Of a stretch of DNA of 64,000 nt, positions 12,262 to 25,311 are shown in pieces. Source of the DNA: Erwinia sp. 198 (GTDB lineage: Bacteria > Pseudomonadota > Gammaproteobacteria > Enterobacterales > Enterobacteriaceae); the NCBI RefSeq assembly GCF_003937915.1, contig NZ_RHUM01000002.1:124001-188000 (forward strand), read 5' to 3'. The stretch's first letter is position 1. Every line of letters begins with the position of its first letter. The notes under the pieces are model-generated. The model was not told where the DNA came from, did no database searches, and saw nothing but the letters and a program-made list of their open reading frames with translations. A program made the position numbers and the translations under genes.

Positions 12262-13578
12262 CTATTTGATTAGATGCTGCGTCACGTTGCCGATGGCTTC
12301 CACCACCTGCTCGGAATTGTTCTGAATATTGACGATAACGTCGCCCGCTTCTTTTACCAGCGCTACGCCGCTGTCGGCCCGCGCCAGGTTTGCGGTAATA
12401 TTTTTTTGCGCCAGCTGTGCCAGCTGCTGGTTACGATCGACCACGCTCGCGATCTCCTGGCTGGCGCTATTGATATTGGCCGCCAGGCTGCGCACCTCGT
12501 TAGCCACGACAGCGAAACTGCGTCCGTGCGTGCCCGCTCTGGCCGCTTCAACGGCGGCGTTTAACGCCAGCAGGTTGGTCTGATTGGCAATAGAACGGAT
12601 CGTTTCCACTATCTCGCCGATTTGCGCAGACTGGGAGCTAAGGCCGTGGATGTCTGCTGAGACTTTATGCATCTCGCCGGCAACTTCGTTCATGCGCGCC
12701 ACGCTGTTTTCAATCACGCTGACGCCGAGCCGCGTGTTTTGACTGGTTTCCACCGCCGCTTTATACGCGTGATCGACCGCTTCGCGCTCCTGCTGGTTTT
12801 TCTCTACCTGCGCCGTTACATCGGTAGCGAATTTGACCACCTCATAAAGCTCGTTGTTAGCGTCAAAAATCGGATTATAGGTGGCGCGCAGCCAAATCGT
12901 TTCGCCTTTGCTGTTAACGCGGGGGAATTGCCCGGCGACAAAGTCGCCCTTTTGCAACTTGTGCCAGAACTCGCTGTATTCACGGCTGTTATACACTTCC
13001 GGCGCGCAAAACATGCGGTGATGACGCCCGATAATTTGCTCATGGCTATAACCGGTAGTTTTTAAAAAGTTCTGGTTGGCGCGTAAGACTTCACCCTTCA
13101 GGTTAAAAGCGATCACCGCCATCGAGCGGCTGATAGCGGTCGTCATCGCCCGCTGCTCCTGCGCATCCTGGATATGGCGAGTAATATCGGAAGCCAGCTT
13201 AACAATTTTAATCACCCGGCCGTGGCGATCCTGTACCGGCACATAGTTAGCTTCAAGCCAGATCGGGCGCTGATGTTTTGTCAGCCGCAGGAACTTATCG
13301 CTGAAGCTTTCGCCACGCGCAAGACGCTGCCAGAACTGATCATATTCCGGCGAGTGGATTAGCTCGTCAGTACAGAAAAGCCGATGATGCTTGCCAACGA
13401 TTTCGCTCAGTTTGTAGCCCATTGCCTCCAGAAAAAGCGCGTTTGCCGTCAGGATATGCCCCTGTGGCGTAAATTCGATCATGGCGATGGCATTGCTCAG
13501 CGAGCTGAGCGTTGCGCGTAAATGGCGGGCTTTGGGTTTCAGCCAGGACAATATCCCCGATTTTGTAGAGTCGATCAT
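12262..13578 (-). CDS. Soluble methyl-accepting chemoreceptor with two PAS domains
   Basis: A cytoplasmic chemotaxis transducer of BdlA/Aer-like architecture, 438 residues, with no membrane segment. PAS 1 spans about 30-125 ([16 protein letters not shown]), PAS 2 about 150-248 ([16 protein letters not shown]). Each is followed by a PAC-type motif ([28 protein letters not shown]). The methyl-accepting signalling domain runs from about 260 to the end and carries the hairpin tip [17 protein letters not shown]. The paired HHRLFC/HHRMFC motifs suggest haem- or flavin-type PAS ligands, but this is inference. The start at 13578 has AAGG 8 bases upstream; an upstream ATG at 13614 has none. It diverges from srfABC and has a sigma-28 promoter. 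Confidence 0.9.
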
Positions 13579-13621
13579 GTTGTAACCTTTTGTCATATTT
13601 ATGGTATTCGTCACAAAATCG

Positions 13622-13856: not shown

Positions 13857-15335
13857 GTGGCTAAACTATTTTTACGCAGCGGAAGCCTGGACGCGGTTCT
13901 GCCTCTTGGCGAAAACGGTCAGCCCGTTTATTTATCAGCCCTGCAGCTGCGCGAGACGCTGCGCCTGCGGAAACAGCAGCAGATTGCTGACTGTCTGGCT
14001 ATTCCTCAACCCAACGATGCCGGCGATCGTCTGGACTGGTATTCGCCCATCTCCGGCAAAGTTATCTCCTGGGCCGCGGCCAGCGATAGCGCACGGGCGC
14101 ACGCGTTAAATCAGCTGGTCGCCTGTCAGCAAACGGTGGCCGACCTGTGTCAGCGTGCGCTGCAGTCGGATAAAAACAGCCAGAAACTTTTTGGCGCACT
14201 GCTGGCTAAAGCGATTCAGTTTCCCGATCAAAACTTTGTGTACCTGGTCGGCGGCAAACCCGTTCTGACCTTCTGGGGATTTGTCAGCCTGGAGAAAAAA
14301 GGCCAGCTGGATCCGCTGGATTGTCTGCGCGCTGTCGAAGAAGAAGCGCCGTTGACGCTGTCGAAAATGACGGCGGCCGCACCGGTAGTTGCCGTCGCGC
14401 CTGCAGTAAGCGCGACGCCTGCCGCTGCTGCTGTCACGCCTGCCGCTGCGCCCGCCATCGCGGCTTATCAGACCTCCGCCGAGCCGGAAAATACGCCTGA
14501 GCCACCGCCCGCTGCATCAGCGCCCGTGAAACCAAAACCAGTAAAAAATACCGCCAGGCAAAACCTGCTGCGCTATGGCTGGATACTGCCTGCTGCCGCG
14601 CTGCTGGTTGTTTTTGGCGTACAGATGAAAAACTATTTCTCCGCTATGCGTCAGGAAGTGACAGCGTCACCGACAGCGAACGTAAATGCGCCGAAACCTG
14701 CGGTTGCGCCCGAGAAAGCCGCTGCTGACAGACAGCAACCTGCTACCGAACCGGCTAAACAAACCACTGAAACGAAGCCTGCTGCCGATGCGATTAAACA
14801 ACCTGCCGAAACGCAGCCTGTTGCCGAACAGGACGCGGTGCTGCCGGTAGCGCCCGCCAGCGTTGCGGCCGTTGCGGCAACGCCGACGCAGACCGCTGCT
14901 GAGGCGACGCCAGCCCCGGTTGCACAGCCGCCTGCCGTGCCTGCGGGTAAAGATGATTTGGTTCTGCCGACGAACGCGGTCAAGCTAGGCTCTACCCGTT
15001 TCCTTAACGGCAACTGGCGCGTAATTGTCGGCATTAAAACCCCGCTGACCGGCAAGCCGCCCGTGCTGCGCTATCAGCTGCGCAATGGCAAAGGCCAGGC
15101 GCAGATGACCCAGGGCGACGGCACCGTTTGTCGCGTTGAGGTCTACGCGGGCGTGATGAAGTCCGGCAACCTGGTGATCAACAGCCGCACCCGAGCGAAA
15201 TGCAGCGACGGTTCGCGCTACCACATGCCTGAGCTGACCTGCGTACAGGGCGCCGAAGGCACCGCCGCCGCCTGTAGCGGCCAATATGATGCCGATACCG
15301 TATTACCGATGACGATGAAGCGCGAGAGTAAATAA
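13857..15335 (+). CDS. srfA: SrfA, membrane-anchored component of the SrfABC system
   Basis: First gene of the srfABC operon, 492 residues; biochemical role unknown. Four parts are visible. An N-terminal domain (1-165) contains SPISGKVISWAA and DQNFVYLVGGKPVLTFWGF. An Ala/Pro-rich linker (about 170-232) follows. One membrane segment lies near 238-254 (GWILPAAALLVVFGVQM). After a second Ala/Pro/Thr-rich stretch (about 260-370), a C-terminal domain (375-492) carries four Cys. This implies a cytoplasmic head and a periplasmic tail. GTG start at 13857 with AAGGT 7 bases upstream. Its stop TAA overlaps the next ATG by one base (translational coupling). Called 'putative virulence factor' in related bacteria. 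Confidence 0.85.
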   Translation: MAKLFLRSGSLDAVLPLGENGQPVYLSALQLRETLRLRKQQQIADCLAIPQPNDAGDRLDWYSPISGKVISWAAASDSARAHALNQLVACQQTVADLCQRALQSDKNSQKLFGALLAKAIQFPDQNFVYLVGGKPVLTFWGFVSLEKKGQLDPLDCLRAVEEEAPLTLSKMTAAAPVVAVAPAVSATPAAAAVTPAAAPAIAAYQTSAEPENTPEPPPAASAPVKPKPVKNTARQNLLRYGWILPAAALLVVFGVQMKNYFSAMRQEVTASPTANVNAPKPAVAPEKAAADRQQPATEPAKQTTETKPAADAIKQPAETQPVAEQDAVLPVAPASVAAVAATPTQTAAEATPAPVAQPPAVPAGKDDLVLPTNAVKLGSTRFLNGNWRVIVGIKTPLTGKPPVLRYQLRNGKGQAQMTQGDGTVCRVEVYAGVMKSGNLVINSRTRAKCSDGSRYHMPELTCVQGAEGTAAACSGQYDADTVLPMTMKRESK

Positions 15336-18319
15336 TGATGCTGGCGACCGCAGATTTTAAACCGAACATGACGCTGATTCAGAACAGCGGCATCCAGTTC
15401 CTGGATTTTGCCCTGACGCCGGATCCGGAAAACGATTTGCCGGGCAAATTTGTCCGCCAGACGGCCAACGGCCCGCTGCTGCGTCTGAACTTTAACGCAC
15501 AGAGCGGCAAATATTTGCTGCCGATCGCGGTGGGCGGTATGCCGGAAGTGGTGAAGCCCGAGTTCAGTTTCCCGCTGGCGCAGTCGCTGGCGCTGCTGGA
15601 CGGCGTGTGGCTGCCGCTGCCTTTCTTTCGCTTTAATCCGCCCCGTACTTTTATCGGCGGGCCTGATAACTGGGCGCGGGTGCAGATCGTCGCGCTGGAG
15701 AAACCCGATCAAAACGGCAAGACGCACCGTATCTGCCTGGCTTTTGAAACCCGCACCTGGCCGGAAGGCGAAGACGAGTCGCTGGCGCTGGTGGAGAGCG
15801 ATGTCAAAAACGGCGTCAGCTTCGCGCTGGCTTACCGTAGCAACGAGCTGGGCGAGTTTCTGGATCATACCTGGATCGACGGCTGGCTGCGTGAGGTGTT
15901 CAGTCAGCAGGCTGCCGCCGTCGAGCAACGTCCACAGGTTAATATCCGCACCGCGCTGCGTGAATTCGAATATCAGGCCCATTACCTGAATATCCTGCAT
16001 ATGCTTGGCCACCAGCTGGCGCTGCCGGAGCTGAAGATCAGCGCCGCCACGTTACAGGAGCCGGCCATCCCGGTCGATTTGATCCTGGACGTCGGTAACT
16101 CGCATACCTGCGGCATTATGGTGGAAGATCACGTTGACGATCATCACGGCCTCAAGCACACCTATGAGCTGCATCTGCGGGATCTGGGCACGCCGCACCG
16201 CGTCTATAACGAGCTGTTTGAGAGCCGCGTTGAATTTGCCCAGGCCAGCTTCGGCAAGCAGAACTTCTCAATGGAAAGCGGACGCGATGACGCCTTTATC
16301 TGGCCTTCGATTACCCGCGTAGGCCGCGAGGCGAGCAACCTGGCGCTGCAGCGTTTGGGCACGGAAGGTGCAACCGGCATTTCCAGCCCGCGCCGCTATC
16401 TCTGGGATGAGGATGCCTATACGCCGGGCTGGCGCTTTAGCCGCACGCCGGGCAACGCCGCGCTGGAGCCGCTGGCAACCGCCGCGCCGCTGACCAATCT
16501 GGTTAATGACGAAGGCGAGCCGCTGTTCAGCCAGCCGCTGGAAGAGCGCCTGCCGGTCTTTACGCCGCAGTACAGCCGCAGCTCTGTCATGACGTTTATG
16601 CTTGGCGAACTGCTGGCGCAGGCGCTGCTGCAAATGAACAGCCCGGCGCAGCGCCAGAAGATGCTGCACAGCAGCGCGCCGCGCCAGCTGCGTAATATTA
16701 TTCTGACGCTGCCTTCCGCCATGCCTAAACCGGAGCGCGAGATCTTCCGCCGTCGGATGCAGGAAGCGATCGCGCTGATCTGGAAAGCGATGGGCTGGCA
16801 TCCGGCCGACGACGATTTTACCAGTGCCAAAGACAAGGCGAAAAGCAGCGTGCCGGTGCCGGACGTACAGATGGAATGGGATGAAGCGACCTGCGGCCAG
16901 ATGGTTTATCTCTATAACGAAACGCAGGTGAACTTCGGTGGCCGCGCCGAGGCGTTCTTTGTCAGCATGGCGCGTCCCGATCGCGTCCGCGCGCCCGACG
17001 AGCCGGTGGGCAAAACGCTGCGTATCGCCTCTATCGATATCGGCGGCGGCACCACCGATCTGGCGATCACCCAGTATCGCCTGGATGACGGCGTTGGCAA
17101 CAACGTGAAGATTATGCCGCGCCTGCTGTTCCGCGAAGGCTTTAAACAGGCCGGAGACGATATTCTGCTGGATGTGATCCAGCTTTATGTACTGCCTGCC
17201 CTGCAGCACGCGTTCAAAGAAGCCGGTATGGTGAACCCGGAAGGCGTAATGACGCGGCTGTTCGGCCATGAAGGTCGGCTGGACGGACATTCCACGCTGC
17301 GTCAGCAGGTTACGCTGCAAATTTTCATTCCGGTGGGCCAGGCGATTCTGGAAGCCTATGAGAAATTCGATCCGTTGGAGCTGAATGCGGAGCTGGACGC
17401 GCGCTTTGGCGAGCTGCTGGCCCAGCCACCCACGCAAAAGCTGCTTGACTATATCAACCGTGAGATCCAGCGCGAGTTGCCGAACGAGGCGGAAGCTTTC
17501 GATCTGCTGCGCGTGCCGCTGGTAGTCAGGCTGAGCAAGCTTCATGCAGAATTCCTGTCGCCGCGCATGAATATTACCCAGAGCCTGCGCTCGATGTCAG
17601 AAGTGGTCGCCGTGTACGACTGCGACGTGCTGCTGCTGACGGGACGCCCTTCGCGCTTCCCTGGCGTGCAGGCGCTGTTCCGTCATCTTCAGCCGCTGCC
17701 GGTAAGCCGTATTCTGTCACTGGACGGCTACCACACTAACGACTGGTATCCCTTTAACAAGCAGGGCCGGATTGAGAATCCGAAATCCACGGCGGCGGTC
17801 GGGGCTATGCTGTGCCTGCTGTCGCTGGATTTAAGGCTGGCGAACTTCTGGTTTAAGGCGGGCGATTTTCAGCCGTACTCCACCATTCGTTATTTGGGCA
17901 TGCTGGACGGTAACGGCAGCCTGAGCGCCGAGAACGTCTGGTATGCCGATATCGATCTGGATGACGATAATTTCCGGCTCGACCCACGCGAACGTTTTCA
18001 GGTTCGCGGCGCGCTGACGCTGGGATTCCGGCAGCTGGATAACGATCGCTGGCCCGCTTCGCCGCTTTACACCCTGTCGATCGCCGATCCACAGCTGGCG
18101 CGCAGCGTAGCAGGCGACAAGGTGTTGAAGATCAAGCTGGCGGTGGCGGAGACCAAAGGCGAATTCGGCCCGGAAAGATTTGCTATTGCCGAGGCAACGC
18201 TGGACGACGGCAGCCGCGTGCCGCTGGAACATCTGCGGCTCAGGCTGAATACGCTGGCCAGCAGCGGCTCAGGATTAACCCATTACTGGATTGACAGTGG
18301 GAGCGTATATAAAAAATGA
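15335..18319 (+). CDS. srfB: SrfB, actin/Hsp70-fold ATPase candidate
   Basis: 994 residues, the usual length for SrfB. The three signatures of the actin/Hsp70 ATPase fold appear in order. The phosphate-1 loop LILDVGNSHTCG lies near residue 249, the phosphate-2 loop IASIDIGGGTTDLAIT near 564, and an adenosine-type motif LLLTGRPSRFPGVQALF near 767 recalls the 'GGxSRxPxV' of Hsp70. Hence nucleotide-driven conformational change is inferred. A 240-residue N-terminal region precedes the first loop. ATG 15335 overlaps the srfA stop (a second ATG is at 15338), and the 3' end overlaps srfC by ATGA. No signal peptide, so cytosolic. Substrate and partner unknown, though SrfC is the obvious candidate. 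Confidence 0.88.
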   Translation: MMLATADFKPNMTLIQNSGIQFLDFALTPDPENDLPGKFVRQTANGPLLRLNFNAQSGKYLLPIAVGGMPEVVKPEFSFPLAQSLALLDGVWLPLPFFRFNPPRTFIGGPDNWARVQIVALEKPDQNGKTHRICLAFETRTWPEGEDESLALVESDVKNGVSFALAYRSNELGEFLDHTWIDGWLREVFSQQAAAVEQRPQVNIRTALREFEYQAHYLNILHMLGHQLALPELKISAATLQEPAIPVDLILDVGNSHTCGIMVEDHVDDHHGLKHTYELHLRDLGTPHRVYNELFESRVEFAQASFGKQNFSMESGRDDAFIWPSITRVGREASNLALQRLGTEGATGISSPRRYLWDEDAYTPGWRFSRTPGNAALEPLATAAPLTNLVNDEGEPLFSQPLEERLPVFTPQYSRSSVMTFMLGELLAQALLQMNSPAQRQKMLHSSAPRQLRNIILTLPSAMPKPEREIFRRRMQEAIALIWKAMGWHPADDDFTSAKDKAKSSVPVPDVQMEWDEATCGQMVYLYNETQVNFGGRAEAFFVSMARPDRVRAPDEPVGKTLRIASIDIGGGTTDLAITQYRLDDGVGNNVKIMPRLLFREGFKQAGDDILLDVIQLYVLPALQHAFKEAGMVNPEGVMTRLFGHEGRLDGHSTLRQQVTLQIFIPVGQAILEAYEKFDPLELNAELDARFGELLAQPPTQKLLDYINREIQRELPNEAEAFDLLRVPLVVRLSKLHAEFLSPRMNITQSLRSMSEVVAVYDCDVLLLTGRPSRFPGVQALFRHLQPLPVSRILSLDGYHTNDWYPFNKQGRIENPKSTAAVGAMLCLLSLDLRLANFWFKAGDFQPYSTIRYLGMLDGNGSLSAENVWYADIDLDDDNFRLDPRERFQVRGALTLGFRQLDNDRWPASPLYTLSIADPQLARSVAGDKVLKIKLAVAETKGEFGPERFAIAEATLDDGSRVPLEHLRLRLNTLASSGSGLTHYWIDSGSVYKK

Positions 18320-20697
18320 AAGCGTTGACGCCTAAGCCATCGGGGCAGTTCGGCAAAAAACTGGAAAACGTGACCAGGGGGATCGATCGCGCGCTGATTT
18401 GGCTGGAAAGCGCCCGTACCACCGCCCCACGTCTTAATATGGAAGCGGATCGCCTTGGCGTCCGGCTACGGCATCAGCACAACAAAGCAACCCGGCTGAA
18501 TGAGGCTGCGAGCAAAGAGTGCGCGGTCGGCTTTTTTGGCCTTGCGCAGGCGGGCAAAGCCTGGCTGATCGCCGCCCTGGCCGCCAGTGAAAAAGGCCGG
18601 ATGGAGCTGGCGCTGGGCAATACCACCTTTGACTATGCGCAGCTTAATCCGCAGCAGCAGAGCGCCACAATGGTCATGCGCTTCAGCGGCCGGCAGACCA
18701 GCACCGATAACGAATGGCCGGTGCAGCTGTCGCTGATGAGCGAAGAAGAGATCGCCGGGGTGCTGGCACAAATCTGGGCCAAACGCAGCGGCAGCGAAAC
18801 CGTCGCGCTGGACGAGCAGCAGATTGCCGAGCGCATGAAAAGCGTCGCCGTTTATCGCCAGGCGCAGAGCGTGGAAGGCATGAGCAGTAATAACGTGGTG
18901 GCACTGTGGCATCGGCTGAACGCCGCCCAGATTTGCCGCAGTAAGGCGCTGGAAAGCCATTTCTGGCCGCAGGCCGTAGAGCTGGCGCCGATGCTGGGCG
19001 TGGACGATCGTGCCCGTCTCTTTTCCCTGCTGTGGAATGAAGATCGCGATCTTTCCGCGCTTTATCGCCAGCTGGCGCACGTGCTGCATCATCTTTCCGG
19101 CGCGCGGCGCGTGCTGGCGCCCATCAGCACGGTGGACGATCCCGGCCTGAGCGTATTAAACAGCAGCGGCCTGCGCTATTTTAACGCCTCATCGGATCGC
19201 GTTATTCAGGTGGTGCCGCAGCATAACGGGCGCAGCCTGAGGCCGGTTAACCTTGCGCTGGGCGAGCTGAACCTGCTGAGCCGCGAAGTGCTGCTGCCGT
19301 TCTACAGCGCACCGCGTGAAAGCCTGTTTGAACAGGTCGACCTGCTGGACTTTCCCGGTTTTGAGGAGCCGTCGCTTCTGCCGGATGACAGTGCACACGA
19401 GCTGGCGTTGGCCTTTACCGTCGCCAAGCGTCCTTTCCTGTTAACCCGCGCTGCAGAGCGGCAGGACGTCGATTTGCTGATGGTCTGTAACGCTTCCAGC
19501 CAGCGCGCGGATACCCGCATCGTGGGCCGCGTGCTGGACAACTGGGTGAAGCAGACCCAGGGCCAGCCGCACAGCGGCCGTAAACCTGCGCTAATCTGGG
19601 CGCTGACGCCTTTTGACCAGCGTATTACGCACGGTCAGCACCACGACGCTGCCGTACAGCGCTACGTGGGCAATCCCGGCGACGCCTGGGGCACCATGTT
19701 GACGATGGATGACAAGGGTGTGAAGCGAATGGCGGGCTGGCTGACCAGCGAAGTCAGCCGCGAAAACAAAATGGCGCGCTTACAGGAACAGCTTAGCGAG
19801 ATCCGTCGTGAGCTGAGCGATAACCTGTTGGGCCGCTGGTATCTTGCGGCGGAAAAAGAGGAGCCGGAGGCTCGCCTGCACGTTGCCGAAACGCTGCTAA
19901 AGGCGTTGCAAACCAGGACCGGCGTGCACGGCGAGCTGCTGGAGCGGCTGCTGCCAACGCGCGAAACGCTGCGTCACCTGTTTATGCAGCAGCAACACCC
20001 CGCCGAGCGCCGCAGCAACGAAGAATACGCCCTGACGGAAGAAGATCCTTTTGGCATCGGGATGAGTATCGATCTGTTGAGCAACGATCCTTTACCGCTG
20101 CCGCTGGATGCGCAGCAAACGGGTGAGGAGAGCGAAGCGGAGAATGGCTTTGCGCAGCAGGTCTACCGTTACTGGATCAACCTGCTGGGACAGCTTCCTG
20201 AACAGGACGCGCTGCTGGAGCTGCTGGGGGTGACGCGCCCCACGCTGGAGATGCTGACAGAAGAGCTGACCACGGCCAGTATTCGTCTGGATATTGAGGG
20301 CGCGCTGGTGAAAATCCTGACGGATAAAGATGCGGCGAATACCCCGGCCGAGATGCTGGCCGATCGCCAGGTCTCCCGCGCGCTGAGCGTGCTGGGCGAT
20401 TTCGTCGCCTGGCTGGGCTTTCAGCATCTGCCAGAGGCGGCGCGCCCCGACAGTAAAATCAACCGTGGTCAGAAGATTTTCGCCCGTCCGGAAACCCAGG
20501 CCGCCAGCCTGGGGCCGGGCCAGCGGCTGACAAAGCTGGCGCTGAAGCCTAATAACCATGCCGCCTACTATATCTATGACTGGCTGGTAGGGCTGAATGA
20601 AACCATTCTGCTGAACGCCGGTTACTCCGCCGCTCGGGAGATTGACGGCGAGCACCGCGTGCAGCTGGCTGAGATTTTGAAACAGACAGGAAAGTAG
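18316..20697 (+). CDS. srfC: SrfC, GTPase-like component with an incomplete P-loop
   Basis: 793 residues, ATGA-overlapping with srfB. The N-terminal half looks like a dynamin/TRAFAC-type GTPase. A Walker-A-like FFGLAQAGKAWLIAAL begins near residue 72. Canonical GxxxxGK is present, but the next residue is Ala instead of Ser/Thr. A G3-like LLDFPGFEE lies near 343 and a TPFD in the place of the (N/T)KxD motif near 430. The C-terminal half is helical and polar (REELSDNLLGRW-like segments). No signal peptide or clear membrane segment. Possible roles: a membrane-remodelling or effector protein working with SrfB. Reduced Mg-nucleotide binding is inferred from the altered loop. Confidence 0.85.
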   Translation: MKALTPKPSGQFGKKLENVTRGIDRALIWLESARTTAPRLNMEADRLGVRLRHQHNKATRLNEAASKECAVGFFGLAQAGKAWLIAALAASEKGRMELALGNTTFDYAQLNPQQQSATMVMRFSGRQTSTDNEWPVQLSLMSEEEIAGVLAQIWAKRSGSETVALDEQQIAERMKSVAVYRQAQSVEGMSSNNVVALWHRLNAAQICRSKALESHFWPQAVELAPMLGVDDRARLFSLLWNEDRDLSALYRQLAHVLHHLSGARRVLAPISTVDDPGLSVLNSSGLRYFNASSDRVIQVVPQHNGRSLRPVNLALGELNLLSREVLLPFYSAPRESLFEQVDLLDFPGFEEPSLLPDDSAHELALAFTVAKRPFLLTRAAERQDVDLLMVCNASSQRADTRIVGRVLDNWVKQTQGQPHSGRKPALIWALTPFDQRITHGQHHDAAVQRYVGNPGDAWGTMLTMDDKGVKRMAGWLTSEVSRENKMARLQEQLSEIRRELSDNLLGRWYLAAEKEEPEARLHVAETLLKALQTRTGVHGELLERLLPTRETLRHLFMQQQHPAERRSNEEYALTEEDPFGIGMSIDLLSNDPLPLPLDAQQTGEESEAENGFAQQVYRYWINLLGQLPEQDALLELLGVTRPTLEMLTEELTTASIRLDIEGALVKILTDKDAANTPAEMLADRQVSRALSVLGDFVAWLGFQHLPEAARPDSKINRGQKIFARPETQAASLGPGQRLTKLALKPNNHAAYYIYDWLVGLNETILLNAGYSAAREIDGEHRVQLAEILKQTGK

Positions 20698-20859: not shown

Positions 20860-23307
20860 TTAGATCTCTGTCCATGGACGACCGTCGCCGTCTGCCGCCC
20901 CGGTCGTGCTCTCCAGGCCGGGTTCAGTGCCCTGCCCAATCCACCATTTAGCCAGATAGTTTCGTCCTTTATGAGTCACTCTGTCGCCGCCAACGTAGAC
21001 GCGACTGGCTTCCCACAGCGGATAAAGCGGCGGAGCCGGCACCACCGGTTCTTCAGGCACTTCAGGCACTTCAGGCACTTCAGGCACTTCAGGCACTTCA
21101 GGCACTTCAGGCACTTCAGGCACTTCAGGCACTTCAGGATGGTCCACCAGCTCGTTATACATTGAAAGATATAGATAATATTTTGCGTATAAAGTATCAC
21201 GCAGCGGACGGCTCAGGGCCATAACGGCCAGCCAGAGATCGTCTTTCGCCGCAGCATAATCCGCGGCCCCAACCGCATGGTTAGCGGCAATCGCCAGCGA
21301 AGCGCTTTCCAGTCTTTCGGCCAGATCCGACTCTGGATTGTTATTTAATTTTTCATTTTTCAGGCCGCTGGCCGTAATGACAAAATGATTGGTTTCGCTG
21401 AGGGTGTCGATTATGCCGGATGCTGCGGGCAACAACCGTAAACGAGTAGGTTCACGATGATAAATTTCAATCCGATCTCCGTAAGAGAAAGCAATTTCGT
21501 CGTGAACAATAAGACGGTCGTTACCCAGAAAAGTTCTTTTATAGATTTCTCTGTTACTGCCGTCACGGATCTTAATCTGCGCATAGGTTTGATCCGGGAA
21601 ATACACGTGTGGACTGTTGCCGGCGGCATGAACGCTGAGCAAGCCTTTGCTGTGATCCAGCTCGACGCTGGCAAAAAGAGCGTCACCCAGCCCTAACAGG
21701 TTAAATGCCTGATTAAGTAACGGCGAGGCTATTTTACGCCGGTAGCTGATACGCTGCGCCGACTGCCCGGCTTTAACGATCGGGTAGCCTGGCTGCACAT
21801 CATACTTTTGGCTTTTACCCGTGGGTAAGTGCAGCGTGTAGACGCCAACAGGCAGATCCTCCAGCAGCATTTCCTGCCGGTCAATTTTGGCCTGACGTAC
21901 GACCGTTGCGCCATCAAGCAGCGTCAGGGTTTCATTTTCAATCTGACGGAAGTCATCGATATCCAGCGTCAGACTGACGCTGCCCGTCAGGCCGGTTATT
22001 TTCAATTGCTGAACATCCACCAGCGCGAGTGGGCTATGCAAGTCGAGCTGCTGCTGCAACGCCGTCAGCCGTCCCTCTTCCACCAGCTGATTTAAAGGAT
22101 AGACCGCCTTGCCCTGGCAAAACAGATTGCTGTCGCGCTGCTGGCGAGTGAGTGGCGCGCCAACCAGCTGCATAAAAGGTGTAACGTCAATTTTAGCGCC
22201 CGCTTCGGCAAAGCTAACGGAAAGCATATCCAGCAGCGAATGTGCTTCAGCAATAAAGCCACTGCGGTTGCTGAGCTGACGGTAGTGCTGATTAAAACGG
22301 GTAAAGGCTTCCATTCCCGCCTTGTTGACCATCTGCATCATAAAGTAGAGCTTCGAGCGCAGATCCCACTGATTTACTGGCGTACCGTTACGCACAAAAT
22401 CATTAATAATCTTTTCAACGGCGGCCTGTCTGCCATAGTCGTACAGCCAGCCCTGCTGGTACTGTCTGTCGCCCATCGTCACATTTTGATAGCAGGCACA
22501 GTAGATATTGTTCCAGACCTCACGCACATCGATAAATCTGTCCGACATAAATTTGCCTTCATAACCATGGGCAATTTCGTGCAGGCAGCCCCAGCCGGGC
22601 TCTTTACTGAACAGCCAGAAGTCGCTAACGGTTGGGCTGGTTTCGGCGGTCCAGCGATCGCTGTAATAAGCCGCGCCCGGGCCGCTTTTGTCCGCTTTGA
22701 TAAAGTAACGGTTGCGGATATTACGATCGGTAACAACAGGCGTCTGGAACGAAAGGCCGATAAGCGTGTTATAAAAATCAAAGATATTTTTGTAGCCTTC
22801 TAATAAACGGTCGACGCTATTTTGCGCGTGGAGCGTACGCAGCCTTTGTTTATCAGCCGCCGGGATTAAAATATTAACAAACTCGCTGGTGATTAATGCA
22901 AACTCAGCGTTCTGGCTGTCCCAGAGATGAAAGAAAGCGCTTTCGCTACCGCCTTGCTCATAGACAGGAAGCGCTGTAGCCATATCGTCATATTCATATT
23001 CCACAACGACCGTGGAAAGCTCATAAGGGGTATCAATAAAAGGCACAGAGGGCGCGCTGGCACTTAACGTAACCCAGGCGGATCCAACGCCGACAGAAGC
23101 TTCAGTTTGATCATTATTATTCAGTAAACGCAGCGTCAATGAGCCGTTATTGGGCGATAGCTGGCGGACTTTAATCGATCGCCCCGCAGGCAGGATAATT
23201 CCCAGATGCTGACGATCGTGATTGATCCCCTTGCTCAGACCGGCCGCATCCATCCATTGCGGCCTTTCCAGGGAATATATGCTTTTTACTTTACTCAGGG
23301 TTGTCAT
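20860..23307 (-). CDS. Enhancin-like zinc metalloprotease (M60 type) with C-terminal chitin-binding domain
   Basis: 815 residues. Zinc-protease motif HEIAH at residues 243-247, with Glu262 (in REVW) as the likely third ligand, fits the gluzincin enhancin/M60 group. Those enzymes cleave mucins, including insect intestinal mucin in the peritrophic matrix. The region around 440-660 (DVQPGYPIVKAGQ, SPHVYFPDQTYAQIKIRDG) resembles the mucin/carbohydrate-binding module found beside enhancin domains. Then comes a Pro-Glu-Val linker of nine exact repeats (about residues 724-752). The last 50 residues (YPLWEASRVYVGGDRVTHKG, AKWW) form a CBM5/12 chitin-binding domain. No Sec signal peptide is visible. 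Convergent with srfC, AT-rich promoter region. Confidence 0.85.
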   Translation of the reverse strand: MTTLSKVKSIYSLERPQWMDAAGLSKGINHDRQHLGIILPAGRSIKVRQLSPNNGSLTLRLLNNNDQTEASVGVGSAWVTLSASAPSVPFIDTPYELSTVVVEYEYDDMATALPVYEQGGSESAFFHLWDSQNAEFALITSEFVNILIPAADKQRLRTLHAQNSVDRLLEGYKNIFDFYNTLIGLSFQTPVVTDRNIRNRYFIKADKSGPGAAYYSDRWTAETSPTVSDFWLFSKEPGWGCLHEIAHGYEGKFMSDRFIDVREVWNNIYCACYQNVTMGDRQYQQGWLYDYGRQAAVEKIINDFVRNGTPVNQWDLRSKLYFMMQMVNKAGMEAFTRFNQHYRQLSNRSGFIAEAHSLLDMLSVSFAEAGAKIDVTPFMQLVGAPLTRQQRDSNLFCQGKAVYPLNQLVEEGRLTALQQQLDLHSPLALVDVQQLKITGLTGSVSLTLDIDDFRQIENETLTLLDGATVVRQAKIDRQEMLLEDLPVGVYTLHLPTGKSQKYDVQPGYPIVKAGQSAQRISYRRKIASPLLNQAFNLLGLGDALFASVELDHSKGLLSVHAAGNSPHVYFPDQTYAQIKIRDGSNREIYKRTFLGNDRLIVHDEIAFSYGDRIEIYHREPTRLRLLPAASGIIDTLSETNHFVITASGLKNEKLNNNPESDLAERLESASLAIAANHAVGAADYAAAKDDLWLAVMALSRPLRDTLYAKYYLYLSMYNELVDHPEVPEVPEVPEVPEVPEVPEVPEVPEVPEEPVVPAPPLYPLWEASRVYVGGDRVTHKGRNYLAKWWIGQGTEPGLESTTGAADGDGRPWTEI
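21052..21138. repeat. Perfect 9-bp tandem repeat inside the enhancin-like gene
   Basis: TTCAGGCAC is repeated nine times without a mismatch (21052-21132), plus six bases of a tenth copy. On the coding strand each unit encodes Glu-Val-Pro, so any copy-number change keeps the frame and only alters linker length. Confidence 0.95.
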
Positions 23308-23678: not shown

Positions 23679-25259
23679 TTATACAATAGCGGAAAGCTTA
23701 AACACGCTGACGCTACGCAGCAGATTTTCAGCCTGCTGCTGCAGGGACTGCGCCGCTACGGTTGATTCCTGCGACAATGAAGCGTTCTGCTGTGTGGCAT
23801 CATCCATCTGCGTTACGGCGAGGTTGACCTGATCGATCCCGACGCTTTGCTCATTACTTGCCAGCGAGATCTCTGCCACCAGCGAGCTGACGCGGTGCAC
23901 GTTTTCCACAATATTTTCCATCGCATGGCCCGCGCGTTCGACCAACGCGTTACCCGTATTGATACGGCTGACCGAGCTGTCAATTAAGGTTTTAATATCC
24001 CTGGCGGCAGCGGCAGAACGTTGCGACAGCGCCCGTACTTCAGCGGCCACCACGGCGAAACCCCGTCCTTCGCTCCCTGCCCTTGCGGCTTCAACGGCGG
24101 CGTTCAGCGCCAGGATATTGGTCTGGAAAGCAATGCCGTCAATCAGGCTGATAATATTGCTAATCTGGCTGGAAAAATGCTGAATCTCGCCCATCGTATG
24201 CACCACTTCCTTCACCACGCTGCCGCCCAGCTGCGCGGCTGACGTGGCATCCTGAGCGATATCACTGGCATGACGCGCGTTGTCAGCATTTTTTCTGACT
24301 ACGGATGTCAACTGCTCCATCGAGGCCGCCGTTTCTTCCAGCGCGCCGGCCTGGGCCTCATTACGCCCGGAGAGATCCTGACTGCCCAGGGCAATCTGTG
24401 CCGAAGCCGAGGCAATAGTTTCCGTGCCTTCCCGCACGTCGGAAACGATACGCGTAAGATTGGTGTTCATCTCTTTCAGCGCGGCCATTAGCGAGGCCGT
24501 TTCATCCCGGCCTTTAACCACGATTTGCGTCTGCAGATCGCCGGCCGCCACCGTCTGGGCGATTTTTACTGCCTGCGCCAGCGGCTGGGTAATACTGCGT
24601 ACCAGCCACCAGGTAATAATGCAGCCGGTCAACAGCGCCAGCAGCATCGACAGGGCCAGGATCAGTCTGGTGTGCTGATAACTTTGCTGATTAGCGGCGG
24701 CGATCTGCTTATGCAGGCTTTGCGTGTGCGTCAGGACGTTGGCTACCACTTCGTCGATCATTTTTGTCGGCAGACGATCGACACCGGTGACCAGACGATC
24801 GACACGCTGCGCGCTGTCGGCATCGCCCTGCTGGTAAGCCTGTAGCGCGCTGAGATAGCGCTCTTGCAGCTCGCCATGAAGCTTACGCGTCTCCCGCACT
24901 TCACGGTTATCCATTCCCACCGTCGGCATCGTTTCGATCAGCGTGGCAAGCAGCTGCTGAGTCTTGTCGCCCTGTTCAATAAAAGCCGTCCTGTACTTAG
25001 CAAAAGCCTCCGGACTTTGGCCGCCGCGCAGCAGCGTATTTTTCCACTCCTGTACCTGAATCTTAAACTGCACCTGTGCATTTCGCGCGGTGTCGATAAC
25101 CCGCTCAATCTGCATTTCCTGCTGCATGATCTGACTGCTTTGCTTAAGCGCGTTTTCGTTGATAGCGAGGCCGCGCAGGCCAATAAATAGCGTGGCGCAA
25201 AGCAATACTGCAGCCAGCAGGCCTAAACGCACGCCGATTTTATAATTAGAAAGTTTCAT
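23679..25259 (-). CDS. Membrane methyl-accepting chemotaxis protein
   Basis: 526 residues from ATG 25259 (AGGG 7 bases upstream). The first membrane segment spans about 10-29. A periplasmic, helical ligand-binding region (about 30-195; 4HB type, e.g. [17 protein letters not shown]) follows, then a second membrane segment at about 198-220 ([20 protein letters not shown]). A HAMP domain comes next, then the signalling coiled coil with [17 protein letters not shown]. The ligand is unknown. The C terminus (SVFKLSAIV) lacks a CheR-binding xWxxF pentapeptide, so this receptor may depend on others for efficient methylation. It has a sigma-28 promoter and sits between the enhancin-like protease and ydiK. 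Confidence 0.92.
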
Positions 25260-25311
25260 TTGATGCCCTGGTAGACGAAGCGGAAGCAATTTTCCGGTTC
25301 TTCAGGGGAAG

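What the first reader, a model, noticed from the sequence alone, without database searches (positions are those of the whole stretch)
13857..20697. SrfABC reads as a coupled actin-fold ATPase / GTPase-like machine with a membrane anchor
SrfB shows all three nucleotide-site signatures of the actin/Hsp70 fold, in order (near residues 249, 564 and 767). SrfC shows GTPase-like G1, G3 and G4 motifs, and SrfA has one membrane segment with a long periplasmic part. The stop/start overlaps (1 base and 4 bases) imply fixed stoichiometry. The family is usually annotated only as 'putative virulence factor'. My hypothesis is a nucleotide-driven envelope or effector complex.
Basis: partly seen in the sequence, partly recalled or inferred. 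Interest (0 to 1): 0.78.

Follow-up and report, generated by a model that had tools for sequence, protein, structure and literature searches.

The report
SrfABC: stripped-down envelope-sensor output complex
Three bacterial genes long labelled only as a putative virulence factor look like an Hsp70-shaped protein and a dynamin-shaped protein held at the inner membrane, the leftover half of a larger cell-envelope sensing system, and in this genome both look as if they no longer burn nucleotide in the usual way.

The parts
13857..15335 (+). srfA: 492 aa, bitopic inner-membrane protein, about 236 aa cytoplasmic N-part and about 237 aa periplasmic C-part (orientation inferred from basic residues before the segment)
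   Evidence: ORF; NF040486 SrfA_fam 543 bits; hydropathy
14565..14621 (+). SrfA transmembrane segment (residues 237-255)
   Evidence: hydropathy 1.85 over 19 residues
15335..18319 (+). srfB: 994 aa, Hsp70-type (ASKHA) fold; the true start may be the second ATG at 15338
15335..16063 (+). SrfB N-terminal domain (about residues 1-243), outside the Hsp70 match
   Evidence: structure matches begin at residues 243-248
16064..17842 (+). SrfB Hsp70-NBD-like domain (residues 244-836)
17843..18316 (+). SrfB C-terminal beta-rich part (residues 837-994); some Hsp70 rows extend over it at the place of SBD-beta, at rmsd 6-8
16085..16114 (+). SrfB phosphate-1 motif LDVGNSHTCG (251-260)
16391..16393 (+). SrfB R353, position aligned with catalytic K70 of DnaK (SSPRRYLWD against FAIKRLIG)
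   Evidence: hhalign; R in 21 of 21 short, K in 24 of 24 other operons, (39 of these 45 also)
16877..16897 (+). SrfB WDEATCG (515-521), E517 aligned with the Glu of the Hsp70 NEPT motif
17036..17059 (+). SrfB phosphate-2 motif DIGGGTTD (568-575)
17630..17653 (+). SrfB adenosine motif LLLTGRPS (766-773)
18316..20697 (+). srfC: 793 aa, bacterial dynamin-like fold (G domain plus helical neck)
18538..18561 (+). SrfC degenerate P-loop GLAQAGKA (75-82)
19339..19359 (+). SrfC G3-like DLLDFPG (342-348)
19603..19620 (+). SrfC G4-like LTPFDQ (430-435), lacks the K of [NT]KxD
19621..19660 (+). SrfC: site where relatives outside the short clade carry about 80 more residues (13 here against 72-102)

Best explanation
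Ancestral system, kept in many Proteobacteria: a T6SS-independent envelope-sensing machine. An outer-membrane TagQ-like lipoprotein, a periplasmic FGE protein (TagR-like), an FtsX-type ABC pair (TagS/TagT-like) and a secreted vWA protein (the periplasmic half of PpkA without its kinase) detect envelope damage. The signal crosses the inner membrane through bitopic SrfA/c5 proteins to SrfB, an Hsp70-fold ATPase, and SrfC, a dynamin-like GTPase, which act on the inner membrane where SrfA anchors them. In the window's enterobacterial clade the sensor genes were lost, SrfB changed the catalytic-lysine position to Arg, and SrfC lost part of its G domain and then often its P-loop. The window operon is therefore most likely a SrfA-anchored complex of a nucleotide-binding but poorly hydrolysing Hsp70-fold protein with a pseudo-dynamin, conserved as a scaffold or regulator at the inner membrane, perhaps in surface motility as reported for Salmonella. 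Supported by computation here: predicted folds, gene order, residue states, one-branch reduction, purifying selection in the clade. Shown by others: SrfA/B/C complex (Xenorhabdus), damage sensing by TagQRST-PpkA (P. aeruginosa), swarming defect (Salmonella). Inferred: damage sensing by the Srf version, the cell location of the tag-like parts, action on membranes, loss of hydrolysis, scaffold role.
For: Folds. Extended operon. Profiles from the srf-operon genes match, in 4 of 4 fetched PpkA-Tag clusters and in the same gene order, PpkA's C-half (612-628 bits, from profile position 15-24 to 656 of 656), TagT (267-278), TagS (362-387), TagR (302-310) and TagQ (43-49) (six-frame search; first seen with a cruder gene caller). 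PpkA of L115 has Pkinase at 165 bits (1 of 4 scanned); 0 of 8 srf vWA proteins scanned has a kinase match. The vWA profile hits 15 of 32 genomes and not the window genome; the FGE protein finds only a 21-bit partial hit in the window genome. TssC absent in 8 of the 13 vWA-bearing genomes searched for both (2 further vWA-bearing genomes were not searched for TssC). Reduction: 21 short operons form one clade (SH-aLRT 100) nested among long ones; K to R one change; post-G4 segment 12-15 residues in 21 of 21 short against 72-102 in 22 of 22 others; P-loop lost in 14 of 21 short and 0 of 22 others, at least 4 changes. dN/dS 0.02-0.16 for each measurable gene in 9 short-clade pairs. K71 of Hsp70 essential for hydrolysis: PMC6762143, passage; K70 as gamma-phosphate sensor: PMC12406271, passages.
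Against: No experiment here. The K70 mapping rests on a weak profile alignment (hhalign probability 47%, E 2e-4) supported by fold and motif order, not on inspected coordinates. Arginine can still make polar contacts and might support ATP sensing or slow hydrolysis. Three loci classed 'other' (L042, L084, L110) have no vWA gene that I found nearby (for L042 and L084 none in the genome) yet keep K and GKS, so losing the sensor does not always go with losing the catalytic residues. G4 is not a strict [NT]KxD even in many long forms, so GTP specificity is unproven. SrfC's Foldseek hits are weak (2 with E up to 0.001), model confidence is moderate and residues 562-605 are under pLDDT 50. The window itself is not in the dN/dS pairs. 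Published claims treat SrfABC as secreted toxin or effector (PMC6950479, PMC11942329).
Confidence: 0.6

Rival explanations
1. SrfABC is an active nucleotide-driven envelope complex in the window organism too: SrfB and SrfC hydrolyse ATP/GTP in spite of the substitutions.
For: The other SrfB site residues are kept; SrfC keeps K81, D345 and P347, invariant in 18 aligned SrfC, and D434, nearly so; strong purifying selection in clade members.
Against: R353 at the catalytic-lysine position in 21 of 21 short operons, P-loop GKA, about 80 residues lost after G4.
Confidence: 0.2
2. SrfA, SrfB and SrfC are secreted or injected virulence proteins (tripartite cytotoxin or type III effectors) acting on host cells.
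For: PMC6950479 (abstract and passages): purified proteins enter HeLa cells, induce apoptosis and form a complex; PMC11942329 (passages): SrfA reported to act on IRAK-1 signalling.
Against: SrfA has a membrane segment; SrfB and SrfC show no hydrophobic segment over the threshold used and have Hsp70/dynamin folds; the family occurs in Pseudomonas jessenii, Vreelandella, Methylococcus, Cereibacter and Gluconobacter next to tag-like genes. No export route was seen in the flanks that I read.
Confidence: 0.12
3. The long operon is a post-translational control module of a type VI secretion system, with SrfB/C as T6SS accessory parts.
For: TagQRST/PpkA homology in the same order; 5 of 13 vWA-bearing genomes have TssC.
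Against: 8 of 13 have none; kinase domain absent from 8 of 8 vWA proteins scanned; the window genome has two TssC genes but no vWA or FGE gene of this kind.
Confidence: 0.08

Closest known systems
SrfABC operon (PF07520, PF10139, NF040486), Salmonella and Xenorhabdus
   Same: The window proteins match the families; same order; FlhDC-regulated in Salmonella (PMC4219756, passage).
   Different: Family annotation gives no fold or mechanism; this work assigns Hsp70 and dynamin folds and shows that the common enterobacterial form is reduced.
srf-tag neighbourhood of host-associated Deltaproteobacteria (PMC3608642, passages)
   Same: srfABC with tagQ, ppkA, tagR, tagS, tagT, a Hap-like protein and 'ligA'; T6SS machinery in only one of those genomes.
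   Different: That paper names the vWA gene ppkA and discusses it as a kinase; here no kinase domain is found, the linkage is seen in gamma- and alphaproteobacteria and one Bacteroidota MAG, and I saw no reduction or residue changes in the passages read.
PpkA-TagT-TagS-TagR-TagQ of H1-type T6SS
   Same: Five homologous parts in the same gene order; detects outer-membrane damage in P. aeruginosa (PMC11881912, passages).
   Different: Kinase and Fha/T6SS output replaced by SrfA, SrfB, SrfC and c5.
Hsp70 (DnaK) family
   Same: Nucleotide-binding-domain fold, phosphate-1, phosphate-2 and adenosine motifs.
   Different: Extra N-terminal 243 residues; Lys to Arg in the window clade; chaperone function not shown.
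Bacterial dynamin-like proteins and mitofusins (BDLP, Fzo1, MFN1, IniA, SynDLP)
   Same: G domain with helical neck fold by AF2 and structure search.
   Different: No significant sequence match to solved dynamins (GBP5 at E 1.5 is the nearest of that kind); G1 and G4 degenerate in the window.
TssR of Bacteroidota T6SS
   Same: TssR_VWA 86 bits in the L048 vWA protein.
   Different: In L048 it stands with ABC, FtsX-like, SrfB and SrfC genes and no TssC was found.

Membership tests
SrfABC (PF07520 / PF10139 / NF040486) | Matches over curated cut-offs, genes adjacent in order A-B-C | tested here: met
   SrfC matches in two stretches, because the middle of the profile is missing
Hsp70 / ASKHA superfamily (SrfB) | Hsp70-NBD fold | tested here: met
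   predicted model
Hsp70 / ASKHA superfamily (SrfB) | Catalytic lysine (DnaK K70) | tested here: not met
   R353 in the window by hhalign; K in SrfB outside the short clade. Mapping moderately certain
Hsp70 chaperone proper | Substrate-binding domain and J-protein/GrpE partnership | tested here: inconclusive
   C-terminal part overlaps SBD-beta in several rows at rmsd 6-8; partners not tested
Actin / MreB filament proteins | Closest fold actin-like, filament formation | tested here: inconclusive
   rows shown are Hsp70/Hsp110 chains (plus Hsp70-sized chains of a ciliary complex not named as such); MreB and FtsA only at E 2.2-2.4 by sequence
Bacterial dynamin-like proteins (SrfC) | Dynamin G domain plus helical bundle neck | tested here: met
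   predicted model
Bacterial dynamin-like proteins (SrfC) | G1 GxxxxGK[ST] | tested here: not met
   GLAQAGKA in the window; GK[ST] in 22 of 22 long and other forms
Bacterial dynamin-like proteins (SrfC) | G4 [NT]KxD | tested here: not met
   TPFD in the window; variable in long forms
Bacterial dynamin-like proteins (SrfC) | Membrane binding, GTP-dependent oligomerisation | not testable with these tools
   needs purified protein
TagQRST-PpkA module | vWA-ABC-FtsX-FGE-TagQ genes with the operon | tested here: not met
   not in the window flanks; vWA and FGE not found in the window genome; present in long-operon relatives
TagQRST-PpkA module (long-operon relatives) | PpkA kinase domain | tested here: not met
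   0 of 8 vWA proteins against Pkinase 165 bits in the one true PpkA scanned

The most novel reading that the evidence does not exclude
The PpkA-vWA/TagTSRQ sensor is not a T6SS part as such but an exchangeable envelope-damage detector with at least two outputs: a kinase that fires the T6SS, and a SrfA-anchored Hsp70-fold plus dynamin-fold pair that repairs or remodels the inner membrane at the damaged site. Enterobacterial SrfABC is a domesticated, hydrolysis-poor remnant of that second output.
Probability: 0.38. Interest if true: 0.88.

Novelty: new variant of a known kind. Interest (0 to 1): 0.72.

Why it matters
It gives a concrete, testable biochemical identity to a widespread family still filed as a putative virulence factor. 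It also separates the Tag damage sensor from the T6SS and predicts a bacterial dynamin-like/Hsp70-like membrane response to envelope damage. And it warns that assays on the Salmonella-type proteins may miss the activity, because that clade has altered both nucleotide sites.

Tried and rejected
Viral origin: one viral-contig scan with A1 found no relative. Anti-phage defence: no PADLOC match for window SrfB and SrfC, a 13-bit Cmr5 match for SrfA, and of six L039 proteins only the ABC ATPase matched, as ABC ATPases do. Known structures by sequence: no convincing match for SrfB or SrfC profiles, so the fold calls rest on predicted structures. MreB/actin as nearest fold: not among the rows shown, which does not exclude a relation. 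T6SS accessory role: TssC survey. Global hhalign of SrfB to DnaK gave nothing; only the local low-threshold alignment was used. A sigma-70 scan gave nothing useful: 4 promoter-like sites against 2.6 expected; terminator-like sites were 18 against 9.2 expected, mostly inside genes. An FlhDC site upstream of srfA was not tested.

'Short' means no vWA gene in the flanks fetched; genome-wide absence of the vWA was tested for the window and the 11 genomes of L072-L082 plus that of L037, not for L033-L036, L038, L041, L113, L114. The FGE query gave partial 19-34-bit hits in three of the short-operon genomes searched. Near-identical rows (L035/L036, L041/L072/L073) count apart in k-of-n figures; the tree counts changes. 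The K353 column was left in the tree alignment (1 of 1005 columns). L054, L061 and L108 are long-form members of Enterobacterales.

Literature: 10 searches of the PMC library. Nothing in the listings or in the passages seen gives SrfB an Hsp70 fold or SrfC a dynamin fold; most listed papers were not opened, and subscription papers and preprints are not held, so this is no proof of absence. Papers were seen as passages only, by term search; none was read whole.
Full report
What is there. The window holds srfA (13857-15335), srfB (15335-18319) and srfC (18316-20697), all on the + strand, with family matches over the curated cut-offs. SrfB residues 251-260, 568-575 and 766-773 carry the phosphate-1, phosphate-2 and adenosine motifs. 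The key residues are invariant in 20 aligned SrfB sequences down to 25% identity. SrfA has one clear membrane segment, 237-255; SrfB and SrfC have none over the threshold used.

The wider operon. SrfB occurs in 22 of 398 genomes sampled across the phylum, 21 of them over the family cut-off. Outside the window's clade the operon usually continues with c5 (bitopic, about 340 aa), a secreted vWA protein (about 650 aa), an ABC ATPase, an FtsX permease, an FGE/SUMF1 protein, a TagQ-like lipoprotein, and often a small lipoprotein and a second SrfA-like protein. A vWA gene near srfB was seen in 18 of the 24 loci outside the short clade (L046 ends before it; L071 has it on another contig; L042, L084, L051 and L110 have none that I found). 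Not every part is always there: Methylococcus (L047/L060) and the Acetofilamentum MAG L048 (Bacteroidota) show no FGE gene next to the permease. Public annotation shows the vWA-ABC-permease-SUMF1 part in Klebsiella pNH25.1, Enterobacter sp. 638, Cereibacter and Gluconobacter plasmids. A Mesorhizobium plasmid has srfB, srfC and one further gene but no vWA.

Link to the T6SS sensor. TagQ (NF041250) over its cut-off was found in 16 of 59 genomes of the genus of P. jessenii; 4 of these regions were fetched. That these are H1-type T6SS clusters rests on the family name and on recall, since the rest of the T6SS lies outside the fetched stretch. Profiles built from the srf-operon genes match all 4 in the same order: PpkA C-terminal half 612-628 bits (from profile position 15-24 to 656 of 656), TagT 267-278, TagS 362-387, TagR 302-310, TagQ 43-49 (six frames; with a cruder gene caller had scored PpkA in 3, TagT in 2 and TagS in 3 of 4). 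The PpkA of L115 carries a Pkinase domain (165 bits); 0 of 8 srf vWA proteins do. Thus the kinase is missing and SrfA/B/C/c5 stand in its place. TssC is absent in 8 of 13 vWA-bearing genomes searched for both (G391, G114, G363, G506, G507, G512, G513, G514); some are drafts. TagQRST-PpkA detects outer-membrane damage in P. aeruginosa (PMC11881912, passages). The srf-tag neighbourhood was already described for host-associated Deltaproteobacteria (PMC3608642, passages), and T6SS control genes were noted near srfABC in X. stockiae (PMC6950479, passages).

Reduction in the window's clade. A tree of 45 SrfB puts the 21 short operons in one clade (SH-aLRT 100), nested among long ones and next to two enterobacterial long operons, L061 and L108. 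Long branches elsewhere in the tree make deeper joins unsure. Three changes fall on the branch to the short clade. First, the vWA gene is gone: 0 hits in the window genome and 0 in 12 further short-operon genomes searched; the FGE query found only partial 19-34-bit hits in 3 of them, the window genome included. Second, SrfB residue 353 is R in 21 of 21 short and K in 24 of 24 long or other; a local hhalign places DnaK K70-R71 on 353-354 together with the TPS/WPS and VG anchors, and K-R is invariant in 11 of 11 DnaK/HscA-like rows. Third, the SrfC segment after G4 is 12-15 residues in 21 of 21 short and 72-102 in 22 of 22 others. Afterwards the P-loop was lost in 14 of 21 short and 0 of 22 others, needing at least 4 changes on the tree. 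SrfC also diverges faster relative to SrfB in short operons (p-distance ratio 1.6-3.0) than in long ones (1.1-1.4, one pair 2.3). Yet dN/dS is 0.02-0.16 for each measurable gene in 9 short-clade pairs (SrfA and SrfC saturated in one pair; dS up to 2.2, so rough in the wider pairs; 6 of the 9 pairs have lost the P-loop; the window is in none). So these look like working genes, not decaying ones.

Mechanism. K71 of Hsp70 is reported essential for hydrolysis (PMC6762143, passage), and K70 of DnaK is one of two side chains that feel the gamma-phosphate (PMC12406271, passages). The window SrfB is therefore likely to bind ATP but hydrolyse poorly, and the window SrfC to be a pseudo-dynamin. I infer a SrfA-anchored scaffold at the inner membrane. 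In Salmonella the srfC mutant and srfABC loss affect swarming only, and the operon is under FlhDC (PMC4219756, passage), which fits an envelope or surface-motility role. For the long operon I infer: envelope damage, then TagQ/TagR/vWA and the FtsX-type ABC pair, then SrfA/c5, then SrfB and SrfC acting on membrane. Only the parts list and gene order are shown; the signal flow is borrowed from the T6SS case.

Results against this reading. L042, L084 and L110 lack a vWA gene that I could find but keep K353 and GKS, so sensor loss alone does not predict site loss. G4 is not strictly [NT]KxD even in long forms. The lysine mapping is moderately certain. Published toxin and effector claims (PMC6950479, PMC11942329) concern added purified or host-expressed protein and SrfA signalling; they do not exclude a home function in the bacterium.

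Noticed in passing
window 20860-23307 (-): Downstream neighbour is an M60/enhancin-like metallopeptidase with a mucin-binding domain, a CBM5/12 and a (PEV)n repeat; the repeat gives a spurious FRHFRH ORF on the other strand.
   Followed up: no
window 12262-13614 (-): Divergent upstream neighbour is a PAS-PAS-MCP signalling protein; another MCP lies at 23679-25289, so the operon sits among chemotaxis genes.
   Followed up: no
L055:3022-4506, L109:10807-12675, L048:16571-19006: Accessory genes of the module vary in their extra domain: the second SrfA-like protein carries a vWA in Pseudomonas, a trypsin-like protein sits beside srfB in Cereibacter, and a subtilase that clusters with SrfA in the Acetofilamentum MAG.
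   Followed up: partly
plasmids collection: 114 of 142 plasmid records with SrfB are Klebsiella; those listed are about 43% identical to the window, and the annotated example pNH25.1 carries the long operon on an IncFIB/HI1B plasmid.
   Followed up: partly
L050:25-7821: Upstream of the Anaerobiospirillum operon lie four tandem paralogues of about 620-650 aa with MDFEISDDGT near the start; one of the two scanned has ankyrin matches.
   Followed up: no
L048:910-7241: In the Bacteroidota MAG two vWA genes with TssR_VWA matches and a weakly TssR N/M-like gene precede srfB, although no TssC was found in that genome.
   Followed up: partly
L022: A 461-aa frame in G191 matches SrfB only over positions 552-629 at 21 bits; probably another ASKHA protein.
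   Followed up: no
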